Source of the DNA: Ascidia mentula
Lineage: Eukaryota > Chordata > Ascidiacea > Phlebobranchia > Ascidiidae
Length of the DNA stretch: 64,000 nucleotides
Reading direction: 5' to 3'
Assembly (NCBI GenBank): GCA_947561715.1
Contig: OX387202.1
Span: 20,349,001-20,413,000, forward strand
Part shown: one piece after another, positions 3,838 to 63,800 of the stretch
How the letters are laid out: every line of letters starts with the position of its first letter
Position numbering within the stretch: the first letter of the stretch is position 1
The notes under the pieces: generated by a model
What the model saw: the letters and a program-made list of their open reading frames with translations, nothing else
Told to the model about the DNA's origin: nothing
The model's database searches: none
Made by a program: the position numbers and the translations under genes

Positions 3838-3953
3838 GCTCCTGTAGCTCAGTTGGTAGAGCGTTGGGCCTGGTTAGCCCAGGGTCGTGAGTTCAAACCT
3901 CACCCGGAGCTTGATTTTTAAGATCTCGCTCCGACTTGTCTGGAAAAGTGGTT
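3775..3953. mobile_element. Copy-A-only segment carrying the tRNA
   Basis: Compared with 44,160-44,180 in copy B, copy A holds about 180 extra bases between the shared phrases TGACAA and TCCAGCTCGG. The tRNA lies in the middle. No clear target-site duplication or A-tail is seen, so this may be an insertion in A or a deletion in B. Confidence 0.5.
3838..3910 (+). tRNA. tRNA-Thr (anticodon GGT)
   Basis: The 73 bases fold as a cloverleaf. Acceptor GCTCCTG pairs with CCGGAGC with one mismatch. The D stem is GCTC/GAGC. The anticodon stem is TGGGC/GCCCA around loop CTGGTTA. The T arm is GTGAG-TTCAAAC-CTCAC. The anticodon GGT reads threonine codons, and the T arm and variable loop resemble animal tRNA-Thr. 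Box A (TAGCTCAGTTGG) and box B (GAGTTCAAACC) are intact. A run of five T at about 3,914, just after the 3' end, fits a pol III terminator. An extra base before the anticodon stem and the acceptor mismatch leave room for a pseudogene. Copy B lacks it. Confidence 0.7.
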
Positions 3954-6880: not shown

Positions 6881-8937
6881 TGATTAGTGGACTGTATCAA
6901 ATGCCATTCCTGGAAATTACTAAAGACATGTTTGATATTTTTTCACTGTTGATTCGAACTTTTGACACATGACAATACGCGAAGCTATTATTATTTGTAT
7001 ATTATTCTCAGGTTTTTGTCCTTGTTGTTTTGCGCTTAAATTAAATGTCACTTGCTTCATTGCAACAAAACCGAAGCTGTTTGTCACGTAAAAATTGAAG
7101 TATACCAGACAAGTCATATTAACGCGCCAAACCTATGTAGAAACTTGGGCCAAGGAAATTTAAATTGTTTGTTCGAGTATCTGTACAGATTACGACAACC
7201 TTTCAACGATCTCCATAAGTGTACGCTTAAATGCTACGATTGATGAAGATGTTCGGAATGATTCAACCTCAGCACGCTAATCCATGACGCACGTACAACA
7301 CCTTACAACCACCCGGCAAACATTTTCGAACCGGGGGACTCCTGCAGCAAAACTTTATATTATTCTTTGTTAATTGTGACAAACTGTATTTCCGCCGCGT
7401 ATACATGCATATGGTATTTCGAGGTAATCGCTTCGCTTCTCCCACACATATGGGTAAATCTCTGACATATGGAAATCAGCTTTGGGTTCAATAATCAAAT
7501 CGACGTTTTAATAATCCTGTCCATATTAATATTTTTTCCTCATTTCGACCACGATATAAATATCGCCACGACCATAAGCTAAGAGGGGAGCGAAAAGAGA
7601 ATAAGCTAAGCGCAGACTATGACAGAGGGTAGACTTTGACAAGTGGGGAGAAGGCTGCATTGAGCGCCTACGTGTAGTGGTCTGAGGTATGTATTATTGT
7701 TCTAATTGAAAGGTTGTAAAGGTAGTTCGTGGCAAATATTCTTTTGATAGTCATTGGAGTCGGGAGTGTTTTCTTTCTGCAAACATGAGTCCCTGCAGTT
7801 TTGTTATGTTTCGCCCGTTCAGTTGCCTGCCTACCTCAGCGCTTTCTTGGTTGCAACTCTTTTTCAAGTTGCACTGATGATGGAAACGTTTGCACATAAT
7901 GTATAGCAGCATATTAGCTTTGGATTTCTTGTTTAAAGTTTTGAGGCTTTTCAGCATTAATACACATACTGAGTAACTTGCGTTTTTGCCAAAGAATGTA
8001 AATTCGGCTTGTCATGCTTTGAAACATTTTAATATTTTGTTTAAACTTTCAAAACTGTTTTCTACTCTTTTACATTTATACCCCGTCTTTCTGACGCCAT
8101 CGCTGGTTATCTCACTTGCGTTACGTCATTCATCTTTCGCTACTTCTTCTTAGTCTGCTTTGTCGCGTAATCGCAGCAATTATCTCTTTGTTTCCGCCTC
8201 GTCTTTGATATGTTCCTATATATTTGCGACACTTTCCACAAATAAACAGATCCTAACATTCGGTCCAACTCAGATCGCAATGTGGTTTCTTGGGTTACAA
8301 CATTTGGTCTCCTAGATCCTAACATGTGGTCTCATGGATCACAGAGATCGCAGTTTCGTCTCAGAGTCCATGCATTTGGTCTTAGAACTTAGTTAGATGC
8401 AAGAAATAAACAGTGATGACGATACGAACCAACATGATGTCAGACCGAGACTTTCTTGGCAGACTTGCTGATGGGTCGCGAAGGTGGAAACCCTTTTCAA
8501 AAACATTTCCTGCGGCTTATGACCTATGAAGGCACACTAGTACTAAATATTCAAAGAAAAAAAAACAATAATTACAGCTGCATTGGACAAAACACAGCAA
8601 GATCTGAGGAGCCTTCAGGAGGATATTATGCCCTATAGGATAGCAGTAACAACTCCCAGGGGGCAACCAAAGCAACTTTCTCGACAAAAATGGTTTTTAC
8701 CATTGCACAGAAAAAGGCTTGGGGACAACATTGAATTGCAAATTGCATGAGGTTTTTGTGATTTACTTTTTCACAAACCAATCGACACTTTTGAAGACTT
8801 TTTCACTAAAATAATCTCCGACCTGGGGGCAAAATACTTTTTTTGACCCGATTGCGTAGACAAGAGGCGGTCCTAACTCGACAAGTCAAATCAAGGTCTA
8901 CTTCTGTAATTCAATTTTTATCAAAATTCCTGTGAAC
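6881..8937. other. No gene recognised; dispersed repeats
   Basis: Shared with copy B at about 98-99 percent identity by eye. It contains the right member of the 126-bp direct repeat (7,346-7,471) and a hammerhead-like core without stem II near 7,868 (TTGCACTGATGATGGAAACG). I find no exon structure. Confidence 0.5.
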
Positions 8938-11166: not shown

Positions 11167-13090
11167 CCCTTTAAGCGCCACGCCCTATAATCAACAATTG
11201 AAGATTTTTCATTGTTTAAGTTCAGGAAGCTATAACTTTTTATCTACAAACGCTAGACTAAAAATTAAAACACAAAAATCATATACAAATTCATACTCTA
11301 CACAATCATCGCTTTTCCAGTTCAATAACTCCATGTTTTGGAGTAGTTTATATCCAAAAATGTAACCACCCCTACTAAAATAGCTTCCAAGCCATAGGTA
11401 CCCTATTTAAAATTTCCATAACTCCCGAAATTGTGCGAATTTTAAAATAATTCGACTGTTGACTGAATCAGTGTGAACACCAAGACGCAATGAAGCGAAA
11501 AAGCTGGGTCGCTGCGGTCGCTGCATTTGATATTTTTGAGCGACGGTACTGTCTAGTAAACTGAAATTTTAGGGAGTTATTTTGGTATAACCTACTTATA
11601 CTGTTAGTTATTGCTTGTAAAAGGGCTTGTAAACTTTATAACACAGATCAGGCGTTTGCTAACTGATAGCAGATGAATTTGACAGCACTTCTAAAAGATT
11701 TTTTTTGTTTGTTTCTTTTTGTGTTCAACTGGTAGTGTATGTCAGCAAGTTGATGAAAAAGAAGGCATAACATCAATGTATATTGATAATTGAATAGACA
11801 AGCCTTCTACCAGTGCATATAAACCTTTTCCACAACATAACAGAGACAATGTAGAAAAAAAACAAGGAAAAAAATCAGTTGTATGAAATTTAAGCTACCC
11901 TAATTACTGGGTGACGCCCACAGCCACACCCACAACTGTTGGATACTTGAACAAATTGCATGAATATGGTTCCATATATGATGCTTTAATAGCAAATTAT
12001 ACATCAGGGATGTTACAGAGGTGACTGTGACATGACCAAATCATCATCATTGAACTTTTTGTGGTTCTGTTTTGGATATACCCTTCCGAGAACAATTGGC
12101 GATTGTTATGCAAAGAAAAGAATATGAATAATTGAATATACAAGCCAACTACCAGTGTATAAGCCTTAGCCACAACATGACAGAGACACTCTAAAAAAAA
12201 GACAAGGAAAAAATCAGCTGTATGAAATTGAAGCGATCGTATTTACTGAGTCACGCCTTCAACGACACCCACAACCCTTTGATTCTTGAACAAATTGCAT
12301 GAATATGGTTCAATATATGATGCTTTGATAGCAAATTATGCATCAGGGATGTTACAGAGGTGACTGTGACATGACCAAATCATCATCTTTGAACTTTTTG
12401 TGGATATGTTTTGGATATACCCTTCCGAAAACCATTGGCGATTGTTATGCTGAGGAAAGAATTACTCAATTGTCTATTGTCCGGAAAGCAAAACCAGTGT
12501 TATGGAACCAGAATAAAAACCTGTAACTATAAGTAATGAAGGTGTTCTATTTTTTTGTAAATTGGTGTTTTTTATGCTTCGGCAAAAAAAAAATTTTTTT
12601 TTGCTTATTTATTATAATTTTTTTCTTTATTTTTTTTATACTGCACCCTCATAATGTTTATTTCATGTTATGTACATTTCTTCCTGCTATTTTGTTGTTT
12701 TGTACGCAAAAAATACAGCAATACCACCACAGTCAAAATTTGCATGCGCACATCTCGCCATTGTGACGTCATGGAGAGAAACGGAAACCGCCGATCGAAA
12801 GCTGAGACCCTCGCGCACAATTCGTCTGTAGAACGTTTCGCGTTACTCCCAACGGGTAGTTGGCCATTTAATTGGACATGCAATCAGACCACCTGCTGTG
12901 CTGGTTTGTTCATAATGATAATCATCATCAAATGAAAGACTAATTAGTCAAAAAATTTCAATGCGAATGTATTTTTTTTTTTTTTCAATAAACTTCACGC
13001 TTCAAGTTGTCTGTTGCTGAAAACCTTATGTCTCTAGGCCAATCACAACGGAATTGATAATTAATCAAAAAAAGCACCTCGCTTAAAGGG
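11167..13090. mobile_element. piggyBac-type non-autonomous element (copy A)
   Basis: A perfect 11-bp inverted repeat, CCCTTTAAGCG at 11,167-11,177 and CGCTTAAAGGG at 13,080-13,090, is flanked on each side by TTAA (11,163-11,166 and 13,091-13,094). The CCC...GGG ends and TTAA target are diagnostic of piggyBac. No transposase is visible. A segment of about 330 bp is tandemly repeated inside (about 11,786-12,115 and 12,128-12,455). A poly-T-rich stretch lies near 12,590. Copy B counterpart: 54,790-56,715. Confidence 0.88.
11786..12455 (+). repeat. Internal duplication in the piggyBac-type element
   Basis: Two direct copies, offset about 340 bp, share phrases such as ACAGAGGTGACTGTGACATG and TGTTTTGGATATACCCTTCC at about 90 percent identity. 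Both duplicon copies of the locus have it, so it predates the large duplication. Confidence 0.8.
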
Positions 13091-15374: not shown

Positions 15375-15639
15375 ATTATCACGTTGAGTTTATGCCGACC
15401 TAAACTCCATACATGAAGTAAAAACTGTGTTCAAATTTGTTTAAAGCAAAATTGATTGTAAAGAAAAATGCATATGAGCCATAACGAACCATATGATTTG
15501 ATACTGATAATACTGTTGAATACCAAGCAGTTGTTTGGGCATAATGTGCTCCACAGTGGTTTGTCTATATTGTTTGATGCCCAGTTATGGGTACCCAACT
15601 GACTTACGTTGAAAAATATCTGTTCCTGGCTAGTCTGCG

Positions 15640-15715
15640 AGCTAGCCCTGAGTCACAGTCACCAACTGCACTTATGAGACCCCTACAAGACAAAACCATC
15701 CACAGTGTCCCCAGG
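15640..15715 (+). repeat. Degenerate relative of the hammerhead-bearing short element
   Basis: The run AGTCACCAACTGCACTTATG followed by AGACC parallels 16,533-16,558. It keeps the layout of box-A-like head, CTGATGA-like core and GAAAC-like block, with several substitutions. It looks like an older copy of the same family. Confidence 0.45.
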
Positions 15716-16365: not shown

Positions 16366-16684
16366 TGTAGTGTTTACAAACTATTGAGTGTAACATGATC
16401 TCTATGTAAACAATACGTCATGTGACCGGATAACCACATGCTAGGGATTCTATTGGTATTCTATTCGAACGAGCAATAACGAAGTATCAAACATACATCT
16501 GGTGGCCGTTTGGTCAGCAAAGTCGTCTGATAGTCACACCAGCTGCACTGATGAGACCTTTTAGGTCGAAACAGTGGCCATCTGTCAGCAGCTTATACAC
16601 AAATTCATATTATTGGCTCCACATTGCTTATCATCTGGTGTCATGTCTAGTCTTTAGCACAGAACTAGACAGAGGAACACTATA
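16366..16684 (+). repeat. 5' LTR of the gypsy element
   Basis: At 319 bp it is longer than the 183-bp 3' LTR because a 127-bp short element lies inside it with its own target duplication. Confidence 0.93.
16505..16631 (+). mobile_element. 127-bp tRNA-headed short element with hammerhead-like fold
   Basis: Absent from the 3' LTR and flanked by the 9-bp duplication CATCTGGTG (16,496-16,504 and 16,632-16,640), so it inserted after the gypsy element. Its 5' end resembles a tRNA box A (TGGCCGTTTGG). From 16,541 to 16,593 it can fold as a type I hammerhead: core CTGATGA at 16,548-16,554 and GAAA at 16,568-16,571; stem II GACCT/AGGTC; stem III ACAG/CTGT; and a six-pair stem I (AGCTGC with GCAGCT). 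The predicted cut is after GTC at 16,586. The innermost stem I pair is an A-A mismatch. No tail is seen. Confidence 0.8.
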
Positions 16685-19600
16685 ACTGGCGACGAGGATA
16701 ACGAGTTTAAACAACTATAACCTCGACTATACTCGAAAGTTAAAGAGACATACAGACGTAAAAGCCGAACAAAAACAAGATGGCTGCATCAAAGTCTGAT
16801 AGACTACCCATATTTGACATAACTGATCCGTCAACAACAGGTTCACGTTGGGTGAAGTGGGTTAAACGTCTAGAACATTTCTTTGTGTCCGAAGATGTCA
16901 CAGACAACAAAAAGAAAAGATCTCTTTTGAAAGTTTATGCAGGAGCAGAAGTATTTGACATTTTTGAAACTTTACCAGACACTGGTGATGCTGACGATTA
17001 TGACAAAGCTCTTGAAGCTCTTAATAAGTATTTCATTCCGAAGAAACATACTGACTATGAAGTATTTAAGTTTCGTGAGTCAAAACAGTTGGAGGATGAA
17101 AGCATGAATCAATTTTATTCACGACTTCGCAACCTATCTGCTGAATGTGAATTCCATGATCGTGACCAAGAGATCAAATATCAGATTATTTGCAAGTGCA
17201 AACAGGTTGAGAATTAGAGCCTTTGAAAGAAGAGGTATCAATCTCACAGAACTGCTTGATATGGCATACGCTATGCAATCGTCAGAATCACATGCATCAG
17301 CCATAGCAAATCGAATCAAGTCGGAGCCAGCAAATGAAGAAATGGTCTCCAGAGTCAAGCAGAAAAGATTTCCAGAAGAAAACAAAACAGCTTCAAACAA
17401 GCATGTAGAATCAAAACACAGAAAATGTTACTTCTGTGCAGGAAACTATCCTCATGCACGCGGACGCAAGTCTTGTCCAGCATTTGGAAACAAGTGTGAT
17501 AATTGCGGAAAGTTCAATCATTTTCCTCAATGTTGTCTTATGAACAAAAACAAGAGACAAGTTAGAAATACAGAAAACATCTATAGTTCAGATGAAAGTG
17601 ATGAAGCATCACGATGTGTATCCATGTGTCAAGTAAAGAGCGTCAACTATAAAACACCACACATGATCTTGAAAGTGAATGAACAAGAAATTCCTTTCGT
17701 AATAGACTCCGGTGCATCTGTAAACATAATTGATGTGAAAAATCTGAAAAAGTTGAAAGATTGCACACTAGAGAAAACTAAAACAGAGATACATGTATAT
17801 GGAGCGAAAAAAACATTACCAATCTTAGGGAAGATCCATGCTGAAGTTAAAACAGCAAGTTTCAAAATCCATACAAAGTTGTATGTGGTGAAAGGTGAAC
17901 ATGGTTGTTTGTTGAGTTATGGCACATCAAAAAAGCTACATTTGCTTGAAATTGCAAACACCATGGTAAAGGCTGCTGAAGAAAATATCCTTGAATCATA
18001 CGCTGACCGATTTGAAGGAATTGGCAAACTCAAAGGATACAAAGCAAAGTTGCACATTGATAAATCAGTACAACCAATAGCACAGCCACACAGAAGAGTA
18101 CCGTTCCATATCAGAGATAAAGTGAAGAAAGAACTAGAGTATTTGGAGAAGAATGAAATCATTGAAAAAGTTTCAGGTCCTACTCCTTGGGTCTCTCCAA
18201 TAGTAACTCCACCAAAACCAAACAGTCCAGAAGAAGTTCGCATTTGTGTGGATATGCGACAAGCTAACAAAGCTATACACAGAGAAAGACACATCTGTCC
18301 TACACTTGATGATATTATCCACAGTTTGAATGGAGCAATAGTATTCTCCAAGTTGAATCTAAACAAAGGATATCCTCAAATTGAGTTGGATGAAAACAGT
18401 AGATACATCACAACTTTCTCTACACATGATGGTCTTTACAGATAGAAACGCCTAAACTTTGGAGTTTGTTCTGCTGCTGAATTATTCCAGAAGATCATAC
18501 AACAACTGATAGAAGGCATACCAGGTGCATTGAATGTAAGTGATGACATCATTGTATTTGGAAAAACTAAAGCTGAACATGATAAAAGTCTCACTGCTGT
18601 ACTCAATATTTTGAGACTGAAAAATCTTACATTAAACAAGAAAAAATGTGAGTTCAACAGGTCTAAACTTGAATTTTTTGGATTTGTTATGAGCAAAACT
18701 GGAATCTATGCTCAAGAGAAAAAGATTGAAGCAATTAAAAATGCTGAAACTCCCAAATCAGTACAAGAAGTAAGAAGCTTACTGGGATTAGCTAACTACT
18801 GTTCCAGATTAATTAAAGATTATGCTACAATCACTCAACCATTGAGAGAATTAACACACAAGAACTGTACTTGGAAGTGGAACTCCAAACATGATGAAGC
18901 ATTGCAACAACTGAAAGACAGTTTGACAAACAAGTCAGTCATACGCTATTTTGATTAACAAAAAGAAACTGAGTTGATAGTCGATGCAAGTCCAGTTGGG
19001 TTAGGTGCTGTCCTTACTCAAAGAGATGAAGATAATAATCTCTATATTGTGGCTTATGCAAGCAAAGTGCTCACACCCGTTGAACAAAGATATTCACAAA
19101 CAGAACGTGAAGCTTTAGCAATTGTCTGGGGATGTGAACATTTTCACTTGTATTTGTATGGAATACAAAAACCATTTACTCTTGTGACAGATCACAAGCC
19201 ATTAGAATTGATATTCAAAAACCCATCATCAAAACCTCTAGCAAGAATTGAAAGATGGAATTTGAGATTGCAACCATATAATTTCAAAGTTGTATACCGT
19301 CCTGGCAGATTACATGTCACGACATCCTATCACTCACCATTCTGTCAAAGAAACAAATGATACTGAATTATACATAAATTTCATTGCAACATCAGCTATA
19401 CCAACAGCAATGACAAAAGCTGACATACAAGAAGCCTTGCAAAAAGATGAAGTAGTTCAGAAAGTTATTGAATTGACAAGAAACAACAAATGGAAAGCAA
19501 ATTTGGATGATCCAAACCTAAAACCATTTTTGTTAATCAGAAATGAACTGGTAGTAACAGAGGATGATCTCCTTCTAAAAGGTACAAAAATAGTTATTCC

Positions 19601-21021
19601 AAAAATGTTACAAAAGAAAGTCATTAAATTGGCACATGAAGGACACCAAGGAAGTGTCAAAACCAAGAAACTCCTCCGAGAACACATATGGTTCCTTGGA
19701 ATTGACAAAACAGTGGAAGAAACAGTCAAAGATTGTATATACTGTCAAGCTGCTACAGTTACCAACAACTATGAACCACTGCAAATGTCAGAACTGCCAA
19801 AAAGTCCATGGAAAGAACTCAGTCTAGATTTTTCTGGTCCATTTCCATCAGGAGAATATATTTTTGTATTAATTGATGAATATTCCAGATATCCAATTGT
19901 CGAAGTAATCAAGTCAACAAAAGCAACCTCAGTCATTCCAGTATTGGAAAAGACATTTTCATGTTTTGGAATACCAGACATCCTAAAAACAGATATTGGT
20001 CCACCATTTACCAGCTATGAATTCAAGAATTTTGCAAAACAACTTGGATTTACTCATCGCAAAATCACTCCACATTGGCCAAAGGCAAATGCTGAAGCAG
20101 AAAGATTTATGAAAACTCTCAACAAAGCTGTAAGAATCATGAATGCTGAAACTAACTTGTGGAAAAGTAATCTACATCAATTTCTGAGAAACTACAGAGC
20201 TACACCTCATTCTACTACACAAGTGAGCCCTGCAGAACTCCTACTTGGAAGGAAAATAAAAATCACTATTCCTCATGTTGATGACATGAAAGAAGACACA
20301 CAACTTCGTGACAGAGATGAGAAAGCAAAACTGAAAATGAAGAAATATGCTGACAACCATTCACATGCAAAAGAATCACATTTTCAAATTGGCGATAAGG
20401 TTCTTTTGAAAGAAAAAAAAGAAGGCAAATTAATGCTTCCTTACAATCCAACACCATTCACTGTTACACACATAAAAGGCACAATGATCAGAGTACAAAA
20501 CAAACACAAAACAGTGACAAGAAATTCATCATTCTTTAAGAAAATAAACAAAACATCACAACATGATGTACATACAGATAATGATCACCCATATTTTACA
20601 TATGACCATGATAACACAACAACTTGTGAAGAACACAGTGCACATGATTTTGTTGAAAGCGACCCAGTTCCTCGCTATCCTTCTCGCAATCGTAGACTCC
20701 CTCAATATCTGAGAGATGGTACTTACATGTAAATGCTATTGTGCATGATTCATTCGCTTGTATATTGCAGTACTTCATTACCTATGCTGTATATTGCCAT
20801 TCTTCACAATACGTACGTCAAACATCCTTTTATACTTTCATAAGAAGCCAGTGTATGATTGCCAAACTACCTGTGTTATCCTGCCAATTTCTGGTCCGAA
20901 TACCTCCCAGTATCTTCATATACTGAACCATGCCATTGTGTTACTTTGAAGCAAACCGCCATTGTGTATTATGTTAAATAACCTTGAACCTGTGATTTAA
21001 CATCTATGACTTGGGGAGGAA

Positions 21022-21204
21022 TGTAGTGTTTACAAACTATCGAGTGTAACATGATCTCTATGTAAACAATACGTCACGTGACCGGATAACCACATGCTAG
21101 GGATTCTATTGGTATTCTATTCGAACGAGCAATAACGAAGTATCAAACATACATCTGGTGTCATGTCTAGTCTTTAGCACAGAACTAGACAGAGGAACAC
21201 TATA
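21022..21204 (+). repeat. 3' LTR of the gypsy element
   Basis: 183 bp, TGTAGTG to CACTATA, preceded by a purine-rich tract. Two substitutions separate it from the shared part of the 5' LTR. Confidence 0.95.
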
Positions 21205-21473
21205 ATCAGAGCCATAACTCAACTGCTGATTTGAAACAACATTGAACTTCCATCTCTATAAAGCAAAGTATTGTATTTACATTTTTTTGTTATTTAATGT
21301 AAACAATGACTGTATTTTATACAAATCTACTACACAACATGTGTGTTTCTTGTTTTGCAATTGGTTGACATGTTTGTACAAGTAACACGAAAAGTGCAAT
21401 ACTTTCTGTGTGTTAATCATTCCCACAATACTTGGTCACTCTCTGATTATCTGGTAAAATTTCCCCTTTCCAG

Positions 21474-50510: not shown

Positions 50511-52560
50511 TTGTGGACTGTATCGAATGCCAATCCTGGAAATTACTAAAGACATGTTTGATATTTTTTCACTGTTGATTCGAACTTTTGACACATGACA
50601 ATACGCAAAGCTATTATTATTTGTAAACTATCCTCAGGATTTTGTCCTTGTTGTTTTGCGCTTAAATTAAATGTCACTTGCTTCATTGCAACAAAACCGA
50701 AGCTGTTTGTCACGTAAAAATTGAAATATACCAGACAAGTCATATTAACGCGCCAAACCTATGTAGAAACTTGGGCCAAGGAAATTTAAATTGTTTGTTC
50801 GAGTATCTGTACAGATTACGACAACCTTTCAACGATCTCCATAAGTGTACGCTTAAATGCTACGATTGATGAAGATGTTCGGAATGATTCAACCTCAGCA
50901 TGCTAATCCATGACGCACGTACAACACCTTACAACCACCCGGCAAACATTTTCGAACCGGGGGACTCCTGCAGCAAAACTTTATATTATTCTTTGTTAAT
51001 TGTGACAAACTGTATTTCCGCCGCGTATACGTGCATAAGGTGTTTCGAGGTAATCGCTTCGCTTCTCCCACACATATGGGTAAATCTCTGACATATGGAA
51101 ATCAGCTTTGGGTTCAATAATCAAATCGACGTTTTAATAATCCTGTCCATATTAATATTTTTTCCCATTTCGACCACGATATAAATATCGCCACGACCAT
51201 AAGCTAAGAGGGGAGCGAAAAGAGAATAAGCTAAGCGCAGACTATGACAGAGGGTAGACTTTGACAAGTGGGGAGAAGGCTGCATTGAGCGCCTACGTGT
51301 AGTGGTCTGAGGTATGTATTATTGTTCTAATTGAAAGGTTGTAAAGGTAGTTCGTGGCAAATATTCTTTTGATAGTCTTCGGAGTCGGGAGTGTTTTCTT
51401 TCTGCAAACGTGAGTCCATGCAGTGTTGTTATGTTTTGCCCGTTCAGTTGCCTGCCTACCTCAGAGCTTTCTTGGTTGCAACTCTTTCTCAAGTTGCACT
51501 GATGATGGAAACGTTTGCACATAATGTATAGCAGCATATTAGCTTTGGATTTCTTGTTTAAAGTTTTGAGGCTTTTCAGCATTAATACACATACTGAGTA
51601 ACTTGCGTTTTTGCCAAAGAATGTAAATTCGGCTTGTCATGCTTTAAAACATTTTAATATTTTGTTTAAACTTTCAAAACTGTTTTCTACTCTTTTACAT
51701 TTGCACCCGTCTTTCTGACGCCATCGCTGGTTATCTCACTTGCGTTACGTCATTCATCTTTCGCTACTTCTTCTTAGTCTGCTTTGTCGCGTAATCGCAG
51801 CAATTATCTCTTTGTTTCCGCGTCATCTGTGATATGTTCCTATATATTTGCGACACTTTCCACAAATAAACATATCCTAACATTCGGTCCAACTCAGATC
51901 GCATTGTGGTTTCTTGGGTTACAACATTTGGTCTCCTAGATCCTAACATGTGGTCTCATGGATCACAGAGATCGCAGTTTCGTCTCAGAGTCCATGCATT
52001 TGGTCTTAGAACTTAGTTAGATCCAAGAACTAAACACTGATGACGATACGAACCAACATGATGTCAGACCGAGACTTTCTTGGCAGGCTTGCTGATGGGT
52101 CGCGAAGGTGGAAACCCTTTTCAAAAACATTTCCTGCGGCTTATGACCTATGAAGGCACACTAGTACTAAATATTCAAAGAAAAAAAAACAATAATTACA
52201 GCTGCATTGGACAAAACACAGCAAGATCTGAGGAGCCTTCAGGAGGATATTATGCCCTATAGGATAGCAGTAACAACTCCCAGGGGGCAACCAAAGCAAC
52301 TTTCTCGACAAAAATGTTTTTACCATTGCACAGAAAAAGGCTTGGGGACAACATTGAATTGCAAATTGCATGAGGTTTTTGTGATTTACTTTTTCACAAA
52401 CCAATCGACACTTTTGAAGACTTTTTCACTAAAATAATCTCCGACCTGGGGGCAAAATACTTTTTTTGACCCGATTGCGTAGACAAGAGGCGGTCCTAAC
52501 TCGACAAGTCAAATCAAGGTCTACTTCTGTAATTCAATTTTTATCAAAATTCCTGTGAAC
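50511..52560. other. No gene recognised; counterpart of 6.9-8.9 kb
   Basis: Holds the right member of the 126-bp direct repeat and the hammerhead-like core without stem II near 51,495. Nothing coding is recognised. Confidence 0.5.
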
Positions 52561-57880: not shown

Positions 57881-60800
57881 TGTAACGGACAGAACTGAGT
57901 ATGATTTCTGTGGGTGCACTCATGCGCGGAAACTTATTTTGTGTTTGGGTTGTGCGCGTGCTTGTAATGTTGAGTTAGTGTATCCATTGTAATCTAGTTA
58001 TTTCTACGTTATTTTAATGCCTTCTTGGCTGTGATCAGTTGGATTCTAGTTGAATAAAGTGGAGCCGTGTAGGCATTTAGTTTTAAAACGTGTTTATTCT
58101 AGTTTTATTTATCTGTTTGCTGTGAAACTGCAAATTGGAATAAAAGGTTGAGAATTGCACGCATATAAAAAAGTACACGGCAATTAAGGATTTGTATCCT
58201 ACATTGAATTTAAAACTAAAGTCAAAACTGCATTGTTTTGAGTTACGTCTGTGATCTGTTCACATTGTGACGTAATACGCAACGTGCATAGTTGATTGGA
58301 ATGGATGAAGCAGGCGAGGAGCCCAATGTTTCTAAGGAACTGTTTAAAATACTGGACGTTGTACGCTCGGGAAATGGTTCTTTAGGGAGATCAAACGCTT
58401 CAACAAACTGTGGTTCCTTTGGAAAAAGTTTGCGTTCCAACAGCTCGCGTGCATGTAGACTTGTTGATGAAAATTCACTGTCACTAAAGTATGCTCAGGA
58501 ACAAGTTGCCATTGAGGAAGAAAAACTGCTTGTTGAAGCTGAACAACGTCGTTTAACGTTGGAAGATGGACAACGTCGTTTAACGTTGGAAGATGAACAA
58601 CGTCGTTTAACTATGGAATCTGAGCGTCGACGTATAGAACTTGAAGGTAAAATTAAGAGCTTTGAATTGAAAAAGCAAATGGCTAAAGCCAGGGAAGAGG
58701 TGGCACAGGCCACACTGGCTGCTGAACATGTCAGTGAAAGTTGCTCTTCATCAGTTGATATTGCGTTAGATGGTACACCAGCAAAAAGGTTGCCAATGAA
58801 ACGTTTGACGTGCTTGACTAAGGCTTTCGATGAGCGTTTTCATTTCGGTTCATGATGTTTCGCCAACATCACCTTTTCTATACTAGGAAGACCACATGTT
58901 AATGATGCATCTATAAATGTTCGTGCTGATCACGAATCACCGCTTGTTGCATCAAACTCGTTGGGTCCACTGTCAGAATTGGACGGGGCGCATAAAGATT
59001 TGCCGCCGTCTCGGAGGGAAACTGGTATTTTGCCTGCAACCGATACTGATATTCCAGGCAAAGGGAGAAACGCTGACGTGGAATATGGGACTCTTGATCA
59101 AAGCCCTATGAACCAACCTCTTGGACCTGCAGTATCAGGTACTAGACCGACTTCAGATATGGTGTTTTTTGCTGAAATGATCAAACAAAGTTTTAATTTG
59201 CCACGCTTGACCATAGAGAAGTTTGATGGTGACCCGTACAACTATCACAAATTCCTGAATGACTTTGATCGTCAGATCAATCAAACGAACCTTAGTAACT
59301 CTGAAAAACTTAGTTACCTTTGTGAATTTTGCACTGGACGTGCAAGGTCTAACATTGTGGAATGCAAAAGTTTGCCATCTGATATGGGCTATTCTGAAGC
59401 ATTGAAAATACTACACCATCGTCATGGACGAATTGAATTGGTGGTTCGTGCACATATGGACAAACTGATTGGAAGGAACCAGCTGCGAGAAAATGACTTT
59501 CGAGGTTTGCAAATGTTTCGTGCGCAGGTAGCCGAAAGTTACAAATTGTTTGGAAGATGGAGTTGTCGCTACACGCTGGACTTGCCACAGAATTTGGAGG
59601 CTGTGGCTCAGAGAATGCCACCGGATTATATTGCACAGTTCATTACAAAGTGTTCAAAACATAGACTCAAAGGAATATCTCCAACGTTCCAGACTTTGCT
59701 TAATTTCTTGGAAGTTAAGTGTGAAGACATTCTGTCGCCGATGATGAAATACCTTGTGCGGGACACTCAAAAGACAAAGGTTAGGAACCAGTTTGGTAAA
59801 CAATCTCGAAGTGTGTTTAATACGGTTGTAGCGAACACGGAGTCTGATGGACATCATTGTAAAGGGTTGGTGGAATGTCGAGATTGCGGTGGACGACATA
59901 GCTTAAAGGATTGCAAGTCATTTATAGGACGGTCCCTCAAGGAGAAATACCAGTTGGCCCGTCGTTGCAGACTGTGCTTTAAGTGCCTTGGGGCTGGACA
60001 CTACATTGATGCATGTCCATCTGAAGAGACATGCCAAGTAAAAGGTTGTGGCAAGTTGCATCATACACTGCTACATTGGAGCAAGATTAACAATGCATTG
60101 GGACAGTCACGTAAGGGGCGAAGCTCAAGTGCCGCCATTGACCCAGAGACGGTAAATGGGGTCGGTGTTGTTGCTTCAACGTCTACTGCTCGATCATTTA
60201 ATGTGCGATTGAAAGTTGTGCCCGTCAAGGTACGTACTGTTACATCGGATAAATGTGTACTTACATATGCATTTTTGGATAATGGTGCGAATACGACCCT
60301 GTGCTCTTCTCGTCTAATGGATAAACTTGGGCTTAGTGGCAGGTTGAATCCTTTGTCTATTGAAACTATAGCGGGGATGCATAAGATTGATAGTTGTTGT
60401 GTGACTCTTTCTGTTCATGGTGTGGGACAACACGCTGAAGTAGTCTATGACCTAACTGATGTTAGGGTTGTTCCGAAATTACCCAGCTTGGCTGGGAGCA
60501 TTCCTGTTGGCGAAGACAGTTTAAGATACCCACATATTAGCCATTTAGACTTACCCGTGGTTCGAGATGGTGTGGTTGATTTATTGCTGGCAGCTGATCT
60601 GCCTGAAGTTCATGAATATACAGAGATTATCCGTGGAGGTCATGGAGAACCTGATGCATTACATACACCGCTTGGATGGTGTCTGTTTGGTACAGAACGC
60701 AACAGGGGAGAGCCTCAAGCATCAGTAAATTTTGTACAGACTAGCTGTGATCAGTGTGGTCAACTTGATGAAATATTTGGACGAGACTTCATGGATCAGG

Positions 60801-63800
60801 GAGGTCATAAGCCCACATACTCATTGGAGGACAAGCGGGCTCTTGCTGTGATGGAAAGCACGGCCACTTTGGTGGATGGACATTACCAAATGAGCCTGCC
60901 CTGGAAGTCTGATAACCTAAAGCTGCCGTACAATAGAAATATGGCAGAGATGAGACTAAAGAACCTTATGCGTCGCTTACAGAATGACGAGAAGCTTTGT
61001 GAGCAATATAAGAAGAAGATTGCCAATTACATTGAAAACGGATTTGCTCGTCGGATTCCGGATGAATGTCTGAAGCGTACTGATAAAACGTGGTATATTC
61101 CTCATCATGCCACTGGGAAGAAGTTTCGCATTGTATTTGACTGTGCAGCAACGTTCAAAGGAACATCTCTTAATTACAATCTGTTTCACGGCCCTGATTT
61201 GACCAACTCTCTTGTTGGTGTGCTTTTACGCTTTCGCCAAGACCCTGTGGCAATTATAGCGGATATTAAAGCCATGTTTCATCAGGTTAGAGTCCTGCCT
61301 GTGGATTGTGACTCTTTGCGGTTTCTTTGGTGGCCTGCAGGTGATTTCACAAAGCCACCAGTTGATTATCAAATGATGGTCCACCTGTTTGGAGCAACAA
61401 GTTCTCCCAGCTGTGCAAGTTTTGCATTGAAAAAGACCGTGTCGGATAACAGCCATCTTGTTGGTGAAGATGCTGCAAAGAGTGTTTCAAACAATTTTTT
61501 TGTGGATGATTGGCTGGTGTCAGTCGCTTCTACGAAGCAAGCAATTACCTTGGTAAGGGACGTTACCACAATATTGGATATGGGGGGCTTTCATTTGACT
61601 AAATTTGTAAGCAATTATTCAGAGGTTCTTGAGTCACTTCCTGGCTCAAACCACAATATTTCCTTCCTTGATTTAGACTTTGAACACCAGTTAGTTGGTC
61701 GTACACTGGGTGTCCGATGGGACATAGTTAAGGATTCTTTTGGGTTTAGAGTAAACATATCACCCAAGCCATATACCCGTAGGGGGGTTTTGTCAATGAT
61801 GAGTCAAGTGTACGACCCCTTAGGTTTCATTCAGCCTTTTCTTCTGCCCATGCGGTGCCTTCTGCAGGGTCTTTGTAACTTAAGTTTAGGATGGGATGAC
61901 CCCCCTTCCTTCAGATGCATTAGTGCACTGGGAAGAGTGGCTTAGACAATTGCCTCTGTTGGAGCACCTGCACATTCCTCGTTGTTTAAGGCCACCTTTA
62001 GGGTTTACTTCTGTACAATTACATTGCTTTGGGGATGCTAGTAATTTAGGATATGGTGCAGTGTGCTACCTTCGATTTGTTGACTCGGTTGGTCATGTCA
62101 GTATTTCATTAGTTTGCGGCAAAAGCCGAGTCACTCCCTTAAAGCCCGTTACCGTTCCGCGGCTGGAGTTGGTAGCTGCTGTTATTACAGCGAAGCTCGG
62201 TGCTATGGTGGTGCGCGAGTTGGATTACGTCATCGACAACGTGATGTTTTGGACCGATTCGTTGACCGTGTTGCACTATATCCACAACACTTCAACAAGA
62301 TTTCAGACATTTGTCGCCAACCGTCTTGCTGTGATTCATGACTTGTCGAAGCCTTCACAGTGGCATCACGTTGGTACCAAGGATAACCCGGCGGATATTG
62401 CTTCGCGTGGTGTAATGCCGAAGGAATACAGTAATGTACGGACGTGGTTTGAAGGACCGGAGTTCTTGCAGAAGGAGGCGAAATTTTGGCCAAGCCGGCC
62501 GAATTTGGAAATTGGTTTATTCCAGGACGATTTGGAGATAAAGAGGCAGCGGCGTGTGTATGTCACGATTGCGTCTCCCGATGTGCTGCATCTTTTGCTG
62601 CTTCGCTATTCGTGTTTCAAAAGGCTACAGAAGGCGGTCGCGTGGTTGCTGCGTTTTAAACGGTGGATAATTTGGAAATTCTCTCGCCGAGAGGATAGAA
62701 GACCAACATTTGAAGTTGAGGGACTTACCACCTACGAGATAACAAATGCGACACTGAGCATTGTTCGACTTGTGCAACGAAAGTCATTTCCGGAGGATGT
62801 AAGATGTTTGTTGAACTATGAGAGTTTTGCAGAAGCTTTGCACCATACTACTACACCCAATTACAAATCTAATTTGTGTCCTCTCAACCCGTGTCGCGTT
62901 AAGGATGTACTGTATGTTGGAGGACGACTGCAACGAGCGAATTTGGACCAAGAACGTATGCATCAAATCATCATGCCGTATCGGCACCATGTCACCGAAT
63001 TGCTAGTCATGGACTGCCACATTAGAGAAGGACATTGTGGGTTGCTACATGTTCTTGCTTCTCTAAGACTCAAGTACTGGATAATTAAAGGACATTCCGC
63101 GGTGAGAAGTGTTTTGCGGAAATGCCTTTTGTGCAAATTAAGGAGCGCTAAACCCGGGACGCAGATATTGGGGCAGGTGCCTCTGGAGCGAGTTACAATT
63201 GGAAAACCTCCGTTTTCAAGTACTGGTGTAGATTATATGGGGCCTCTCTTTGTGAAGCTTGGAAGAAGTCAAGTTAAACGCTACGTTTGTGTTTTTACGT
63301 GTTTATGCACAAGGGCAGTGCATTTGGAAGTGTCTCCGTTACTGGATACCTCGGCGTTTATTAACGCATATCGTCGTTTCACTTGTCGCCGTGATGTCCC
63401 GACTGATATGTTTAGCGACAATGGAACAAATTTTGTCGGCGCAGAGCAGGAGCTTCGGGAAAGAATCAGTCAATGGAATCAACATCATGTCCATTCAAGT
63501 TTGCTGCAAGTTGGGACGAATTGGCATTTTAACCCACCAGCGGCCAGTCATCAGGGAGGAATATGGGAGAGAATCATCCGGTCAGTTCGACGGATTCTGT
63601 GCGCTTTGCTTGGGAGCACTTCTTTGACCGATGATACCTTAACGACCTTAATAAGTGAGGTAGAACGTATACTGAACAATCGTCCGCTAACATCAGTTAG
63701 TGACGATGCCAAGGATTTGAAGGCTCTCACACCAAATGGGTTGTTGATCAATTCGCTTCATCCTTCCCTCTCTCCTGGAGTTTTTTGCAAGGCAGATGGT

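What the first reader, a model, noticed from the sequence alone, without database searches (positions are those of the whole stretch)
16541..16593. Complete hammerhead-like ribozyme fold in a 127-bp mobile element inside one gypsy LTR
All core bases are present: CTGATGA, GAAA and a GTC cleavage triplet, with three stems of 6, 5 and 4 pairs at the expected spacing. The element has a tRNA box-A-like head and a 9-bp target duplication, and the sister LTR gives the empty site. A pol III-headed short element with a hammerhead recalls the Sm-alpha family of schistosomes. I do not know of such a family described in this kind of genome.
Basis: partly seen in the sequence, partly recalled or inferred. 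Interest (0 to 1): 0.8.

Follow-up and report, generated by a model that had tools for sequence, protein, structure and literature searches.

The report
Sea squirt hammerhead retroelement, perhaps Penelope-moved
The hammerhead ribozyme motif is real and belongs to a sea squirt's high-copy family of tiny non-coding jumping elements of a known animal kind (retrozymes), and the way their copies end looks like that of Penelope retroelements in the same genome, which suggests who moves them.

Summary
Window 16541-16593 is the only hit of a type I hammerhead (HHR) descriptor in the window; 150 Markov windows gave none. It sits in an insert flanked by CATCTGGTG, and the sister LTR shows the empty site.

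The genome is Ascidia mentula. It gives 1980 matches to the HHR pattern against 0 for the reversed control; a pattern that also demands a perfect 7-bp stem I gives 1242. The window copy differs from unit E at one base, just 3' of the predicted cleavage site.

It is not a tRNA-headed SINE. The 127 bp are the 3' part of a 285-bp unit found in tandem, head-to-head insertions; box A/B scores are ordinary. The closest known kind is the animal non-LTR retrozyme.

The new evidence is in the ends. Most two-armed insertions have one short and one long end, 20-30 nt apart, just 3' of the HHR: 21 of 24 in subfamily 1, 5 of 6 in subfamily 3. Autonomous Penelope-like elements (PLEs) here do likewise, 15 of 15 pairs. 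This supports PLE-driven mobility, so far only proposed.

Against: no Rfam cut-off reached, no compensatory changes, no shared PLE sequence, no RNA data.

The parts
16503..16631 (+). One-armed, 5'-truncated retrozyme copy (unit E positions 157-285)
   Evidence: 129 bp, one mismatch to unit E taken from L011
16496..16504 (.). Left target-site duplication CATCTGGTG (7-9 bp; TG shared with the element)
   Evidence: empty site in sister LTR at 21152-21160
16632..16640 (.). Right target-site duplication CATCTGGTG
16541..16593 (+). Type I hammerhead ribozyme motif; predicted cleavage after 16586; stem II 16555-16559 with 16563-16567; stem III 16571-16574 with 16582-16585; stem I 16541-16547 with 16587-16593 (mismatched at 16547-16587 in this copy)
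   Evidence: descriptor scan; family model R1 81.1 bits, E 5.7e-20, but the model's alignment includes this copy
16587..16587 (+). A at position 1.1 where 29 of 29 other first-fetched copies have T; expected to weaken this copy
   Evidence: genome-wide the pattern with a non-T base here has 120 matches against 1980 in all, several of the 120 because an inner GTC was matched
16604..16631 (+). Tail: stretch between the two outer-end positions of the family (about E257 and E285)
   Evidence: distribution of insertion ends
16366..16685 (+). 5' LTR of a gypsy-like element, carrying the insert
   Evidence: two pieces match the 3' LTR at 98.6% and 100%
17147..20732 (+). gypsy-like coding region (17147-18445 aspartic protease and RT start; 19290-20732 H2C2 zinc finger and integrase core)
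   Evidence: Pfam; protease and RT hits are below their curated cut-offs
21022..21205 (+). 3' LTR with the empty target site
15513..15696 (+). Old, decayed retrozyme copy of the subfamily-3 type (68% identity, core mutated)

Best explanation
The insert is a truncated copy of a non-coding animal retrozyme family of the sea squirt Ascidia mentula. Proposed cycle: tandem 285-bp units are transcribed (inferred); the type I hammerhead cuts each unit after E240, giving monomers of about 285 nt that may be circularised (inferred from retrozymes elsewhere); the reverse transcriptase and GIY-YIG endonuclease of a Penelope-like element (PLE) of the same genome take this RNA in trans (inferred); both target strands prime cDNA at one of two internal starts just 3' of the hammerhead (inferred from insertion ends); going round a circular or multimeric template gives tandem units, and joining of the two arms gives head-to-head insertions with one tailed and one tail-less end and a short target duplication (structure shown). 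The window copy is a one-armed outcome.
For: HHR complete and not by chance. Multicopy: 1980 pattern matches against 0 control, 1242 with perfect stem I (matches, not loci: a few cores match twice). In 14 of 15 comparisons of six subfamily representatives the HHR block (75-93% identical) exceeds the 60 nt upstream (52-90%, shuffles about 50%), and in 15 of 15 the 40 nt downstream (47-65%); the exception is subfamilies 3 and 5, 89% against 90% (representatives were picked by a core pattern, so only stems and flanks are informative). Tandem 284-285-bp units. End rule: subfamily 1, 19 of 21 independent two-armed clusters plus 2 of 3 added later; subfamily 3, 5 of 6; PLE families a, b, c 3 of 3, 7 of 7 and 5 of 5 insertion pairs. 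The PLE proteins of families a and b carry RT and GIY-YIG domains. The published PLE tail, an optional extension of 30-40 bp on one inverted pLTR, lies between two RT start sites (PMC11167929, main text read; PMC3846280, passages).
Against: No sequence similarity between retrozyme units and the PLE stretches sampled, so the partner PLE is not identified. In the published in vitro PLE system HHR mutants did not change insertion, and no top/bottom difference in start site was seen (PMC11167929). Exceptions to the end rule: C1_306002, C70_5743642, L129, L025. No compensatory base changes, and pairing no better than when 3' letters are shuffled among sequences (95.5% against 95.6%). For subfamily 1 the minimum free energy fold is not the hammerhead (-18.0 against -16.6 kcal/mol); the subfamily 3 minimum is the hammerhead. 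The hammerheads of PLE families a and b were placed by eye. No RNA evidence.
Confidence: 0.78

Rival explanations
1. A pol III SINE with a hammerhead, like Sm-alpha of schistosomes, moved by a LINE.
For: Short, non-coding, with a target duplication and a hammerhead. L018 is a second solo copy starting at the same base (E157).
Against: Box A and B no better than random pieces; no tRNA; E156-157 holds only 3 of 80 HSP starts; full units are 285 bp, tandem and head-to-head; no A-rich or simple-repeat tail at the 3' ends shown.
Confidence: 0.04
2. Retrozyme moved by a LINE, with head-to-head arms from twin priming.
For: Target duplications, 5' truncation, inverted arms.
Against: In twin priming (recalled) the inverted arm starts at a variable internal place; here both arms mostly start at two preferred sites 20-30 nt apart near the same 3' end, and the PLEs of the genome do the same.
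Confidence: 0.1
3. The hammerhead is a relic: the family moves through PLE machinery, and the conserved block is kept as a recognition site for the reverse transcriptase, not for cleavage.
For: HHR mutants of a PLE still insert in vitro (PMC11167929); subfamily 1 prefers another fold; no compensatory changes.
Against: Core and stem I are kept in subfamilies with different stem III lengths and loops (picked by core pattern); 1242 matches keep a perfect stem I and core; tandem units fit circular or multimeric templates.
Confidence: 0.15
4. Tandem satellite DNA with a chance hammerhead, spread by recombination.
For: Tandem units.
Against: Copies lie on all nine large contigs; many are short dispersed insertions with target duplications; empty site.
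Confidence: 0.02

Closest known systems
Animal non-LTR retrozymes (Cervera and de la Pena 2020, PMC7229834)
   Same: Type I hammerhead, non-coding units of 170-400 bp in tandem, G+C under 50%, target duplications over 4 bp, PLEs in the same genome
   Different: No report for this species in the searches made; standard loop 1-loop 2 contacts not recognised; PLE-type paired ends documented here
Penelope-like elements (Anolis PAc, PMC11167929; Adineta Penelope, PMC3846280)
   Same: Tandem, head-to-head inverted copies, 5' truncation, short target duplications, one tailed and one tail-less end next to a hammerhead
   Different: No long ORF; no sequence match to the PLE stretches sampled here; full-length stem III; short end nearer the predicted cleavage site (+9 to +25 in subfamily 1 against about +61 and +76 in PLE families a and b, whose hammerheads were placed by eye)
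Sm-alpha of schistosomes (recalled)
   Same: Short non-coding repeat with a hammerhead
   Different: No pol III promoter or SINE layout found here
Rfam RF03152 RAGATH-1-hammerhead
   Same: L073 (subfamily 4) 36.3 bits and L092 (subfamily 3) 29.1 bits, same core
   Different: Both below the gathering score of 56.3

Membership tests
Animal non-LTR retrozyme | Type I hammerhead motif | tested here: met
   (by sequence; activity untested)
Animal non-LTR retrozyme | Non-coding tandem units of about 170-400 bp | tested here: met
   284-285 bp, 293 bp between two copies of subfamily 3 in L080; longest stop-free stretch in a tripled unit 94 codons
Animal non-LTR retrozyme | G+C under 50% and target duplications over 4 bp | tested here: met
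   G+C 0.474; duplications up to 14 bp, lengths under 7 may be chance, none found at some clusters
Animal non-LTR retrozyme | Loop 1-loop 2 tertiary contacts of canonical type I | tested here: inconclusive
   Stem I unbroken for 7 bp, loop II 3 nt; the mussel family also lacks most of these nucleotides (PMC7229834)
Animal non-LTR retrozyme | Linear and circular monomer RNA in tissues | not testable with these tools
   no RNA data here
Non-autonomous user of Penelope-like machinery | Head-to-head arms, one tailed and one tail-less end | tested here: met
   21 of 24 and 5 of 6 two-armed insertions; PLEs 15 of 15 pairs in three families
Non-autonomous user of Penelope-like machinery | Shared sequence with an autonomous PLE of the genome | tested here: not met
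   no significant match to sampled stretches of PLE families a, b, c, d; other families not sampled
SINE (Sm-alpha type) | tRNA- or pol III-type head | tested here: not met
Rfam hammerhead families | Score over the gathering cut-off | tested here: not met
   20.6 bits against 48.5 for RF00008, and that alignment used an upstream GTC; no hammerhead in the window at gathering; in the 18 loci tested by E-value every hammerhead match listed is also below

The most novel reading that the evidence does not exclude
Animal retrozymes are obligate parasites of Penelope-like elements: the PLE enzyme starts cDNA at two sites 20-30 nt apart just 3' of the hammerhead, one per target strand, on circular ribozyme-processed RNA. 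The paired tailed and tail-less ends are then a genomic fingerprint that can assign retrozymes to PLEs in any genome.
Probability: 0.58. Interest if true: 0.7.

Novelty: new member of a known kind. Interest (0 to 1): 0.52.

Why it matters
Who moves animal retrozymes is open: the 2020 paper calls PLEs a strong candidate (PMC7229834) and a 2022 guide says they may rely on PLEs (PMC8969392, part 1 of 2 of one section). The paired ends described here can be counted in any assembled genome and so test that proposal directly. The family also adds a sea squirt with 1242 matches to a complete hammerhead pattern, in a family whose tested copies score below Rfam's curated cut-offs.

Tried and rejected
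SINE / Sm-alpha reading: rejected on promoter scores and on the full unit. The Rfam RF00008 alignment, which uses an upstream GTC at 16525-16527: set aside, since the downstream GTC gives a 7-bp stem I in the family. Covariation in stems: none, 0 of 16 pairs. Shared sequence between retrozyme and PLEs: none. A shared stem-loop around the short end in PLEs and retrozymes: folds did not agree, dropped. R1 hits at 7865-7899 and 51490-51524 (17.3 bits): no stem II, not counted.

Rows dropped before counts: three segmental duplicates of the window and C1_616357 (duplicate of C1_543462, same flanks); L091/L092 counted once; one-armed or complex clusters (for example C70_6585825, C69_1655867, C71_17607455) are not in the two-armed tally. 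Four of the seven loci (L127, L128, L129, L131) were chosen because two opposite hits lay close together; L130, L132 and L133 proved one-armed. PLE pairs were chosen because two GIY-YIG matches lay back to back. A 16th PLE pair (family d, L125/L126) is unequal too, but its boundary is unclear, so it is left out of 15 of 15. L116 was fetched but not analysed, so the L072 array is not among the pairs, nor is L108, whose other end was not fetched. Papers not held: so the original PLE-hammerhead papers and a 2021 PLE survey were not seen.

Full report
What is there. The hammerhead at 16541-16593 is real as a motif. It is the only hit of a complete type I descriptor in the window on both strands, and 150 Markov windows gave none. 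The insert 16505-16631 lies in one LTR (16366-16685) of a gypsy-like element; the other LTR (21022-21205) holds the empty site. Rfam gives only a sub-threshold type III hit, 20.6 bits against 48.5, built on an upstream GTC.

Which genome. The assembly (195.8 Mb, 79 contigs held) has nine large contigs and a 19,461-bp mitochondrial contig whose COX1 reads best with the ascidian code, judged by recalled conserved residues. Ascidia mentula kaAscMent1.1 has nine chromosomes, a longest scaffold of 27,920,005 bp (equal to contig C1) and a 19.46-kb mitochondrial genome; its span is 197.0 Mb (PMC11109543, abstract and genome section read). The window is on contig C70, whose length agrees with chromosome 6 to 0.01 Mb.

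The family. The first search scored 40 of 1850 candidates and returned 52 matches. The pattern CTGATGAG-N5-20-CGAAAC-N4-18-GTC has 1980 matches and its reversed control 0; with AGCTGCA and TGCAGCT added, the full stem I, there are 1242, control 0. These are matches, not loci; a few cores match twice. The window copy (E157-285) differs from unit E at one base only, A for T at E241, the first base after the predicted cleavage site; the 29 other copies first fetched all have T. Three of these (L002, L029, L030) sit in the same gypsy LTR and match the window over about 2.7 kb including sequence outside the LTR, so the window event was copied by segmental duplication and the A arose in this copy.

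Unit and subfamilies. Full loci show tandem 284-285-bp units. Related subfamilies keep stem I, the core and most of stem II but differ in loop II, stem III length and flanks. In L080 two copies of subfamily 3 lie 293 bp apart. All sequences in this comparison were found through a core pattern, so the invariance of the core letters is partly selection by me. No pair shows a compensatory change, and pairing is no better than after shuffling 3' letters among sequences. Subfamily 3 folds into the hammerhead at minimum energy; subfamily 1 has a slightly better competing fold. Subfamily 4 (L073) and subfamily 3 (L092) resemble RAGATH-1 hammerheads below cut-off.

Insertion ends. In 42 merged segments and 47 clusters there are 22 two-armed, head-to-head insertions, 21 after removing one segmental duplicate. 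In 19 of 21 one outer end lies at E249-265 and the other at E279-285; exceptions are C1_306002 and C70_5743642. Of seven loci fetched later, three were two-armed insertions of subfamily 1: L127 and L128 fit, L129 does not. Subfamily 3: L046, L079, L096, the L091/L092 pair (counted once) and L131 fit; L025 does not, its second arm ending far upstream: 5 of 6. Of 73 HSP 3' ends not continued by another unit, 26 lie at E253-265, 31 at E282-285 and 16 elsewhere, six of these at E268.

Penelope-like elements. A GIY-YIG search scored 150 of 382 candidates and gave 121 matches. Two elements were read: L071 (892-aa frame, tandem units of 2870 bp) and L072 (801 aa), both with RT and GIY-YIG domains. 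Both repeats carry a hammerhead-like core just before the frame, read by eye; Rfam did not report it at E up to 5. For 15 insertion pairs in three families both ends were fetched; each has one short and one long end: a 242-245 against 282-286 (3), b 262-264 against 300-309 (7), c (5) by mutual alignment and by the printed ends. A pair of a fourth family is unequal too, with an unclear boundary. Published work describes this tail as an optional extension on one inverted pLTR (PMC3846280, passages), lying between two RT start sites (PMC11167929, main text).

Reading. Retrozymes and PLEs of one genome share tandem units, head-to-head arms, truncation, target duplications and the paired ends, but no sequence. 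The simplest account is that a PLE enzyme moves the retrozyme RNA. That link was proposed before (PMC7229834; PMC8969392). No paper listed by searches shows the paired ends for a retrozyme in its title or the start of its abstract; most of those papers were not opened, and key PLE papers are not held. Hammerheads in an ascidian are not new as such: 9 type I loci are reported for Didemnum vexillum (PMC8704543, passages).

Unexplained. Of 80 HSP starts, 5 lie at E128-130, 3 at E156-157 and 7 at E194-196, the last being the 5' edge of stem I; two independent insertions share the inner junction E157-E195.

Noticed in passing
window 15513-15696: Old, decayed subfamily-3-type retrozyme copy just upstream of the gypsy-like element; the stretch shared with L002, L029 and L030 begins at 15375 in all three.
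   Followed up: partly
window 7266-8499 and 50892-52123: A 1.23-kb repeat pair, 97.9% identical over the stretch compared; each holds a weak hammerhead-like string without stem II (7865-7899, 51490-51524).
   Followed up: partly
window 3838-3911: A tRNA gene (Rfam 52.8 bits), the only Rfam gathering hit in the window.
   Followed up: no
window 58961-61945: 994-aa frame with DUF1759 and Peptidase_A17 matches: looks like a Pao/BEL-type retrotransposon.
   Followed up: no
L034, L038, L039 (one-armed copies starting at E195-196): Copies that are little more than the bare hammerhead plus its 3' flank; E195 is the 5' edge of stem I and a recurrent truncation point.
   Followed up: partly
L073 (complement of 315-394): Subfamily with a very short stem II that scores 36.3 bits against the RAGATH-1 hammerhead model, below cut-off.
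   Followed up: no
window 12002-12123 and 12341-12462: Direct repeat of 122 bp, 93% identical, 339 bp apart.
   Followed up: no
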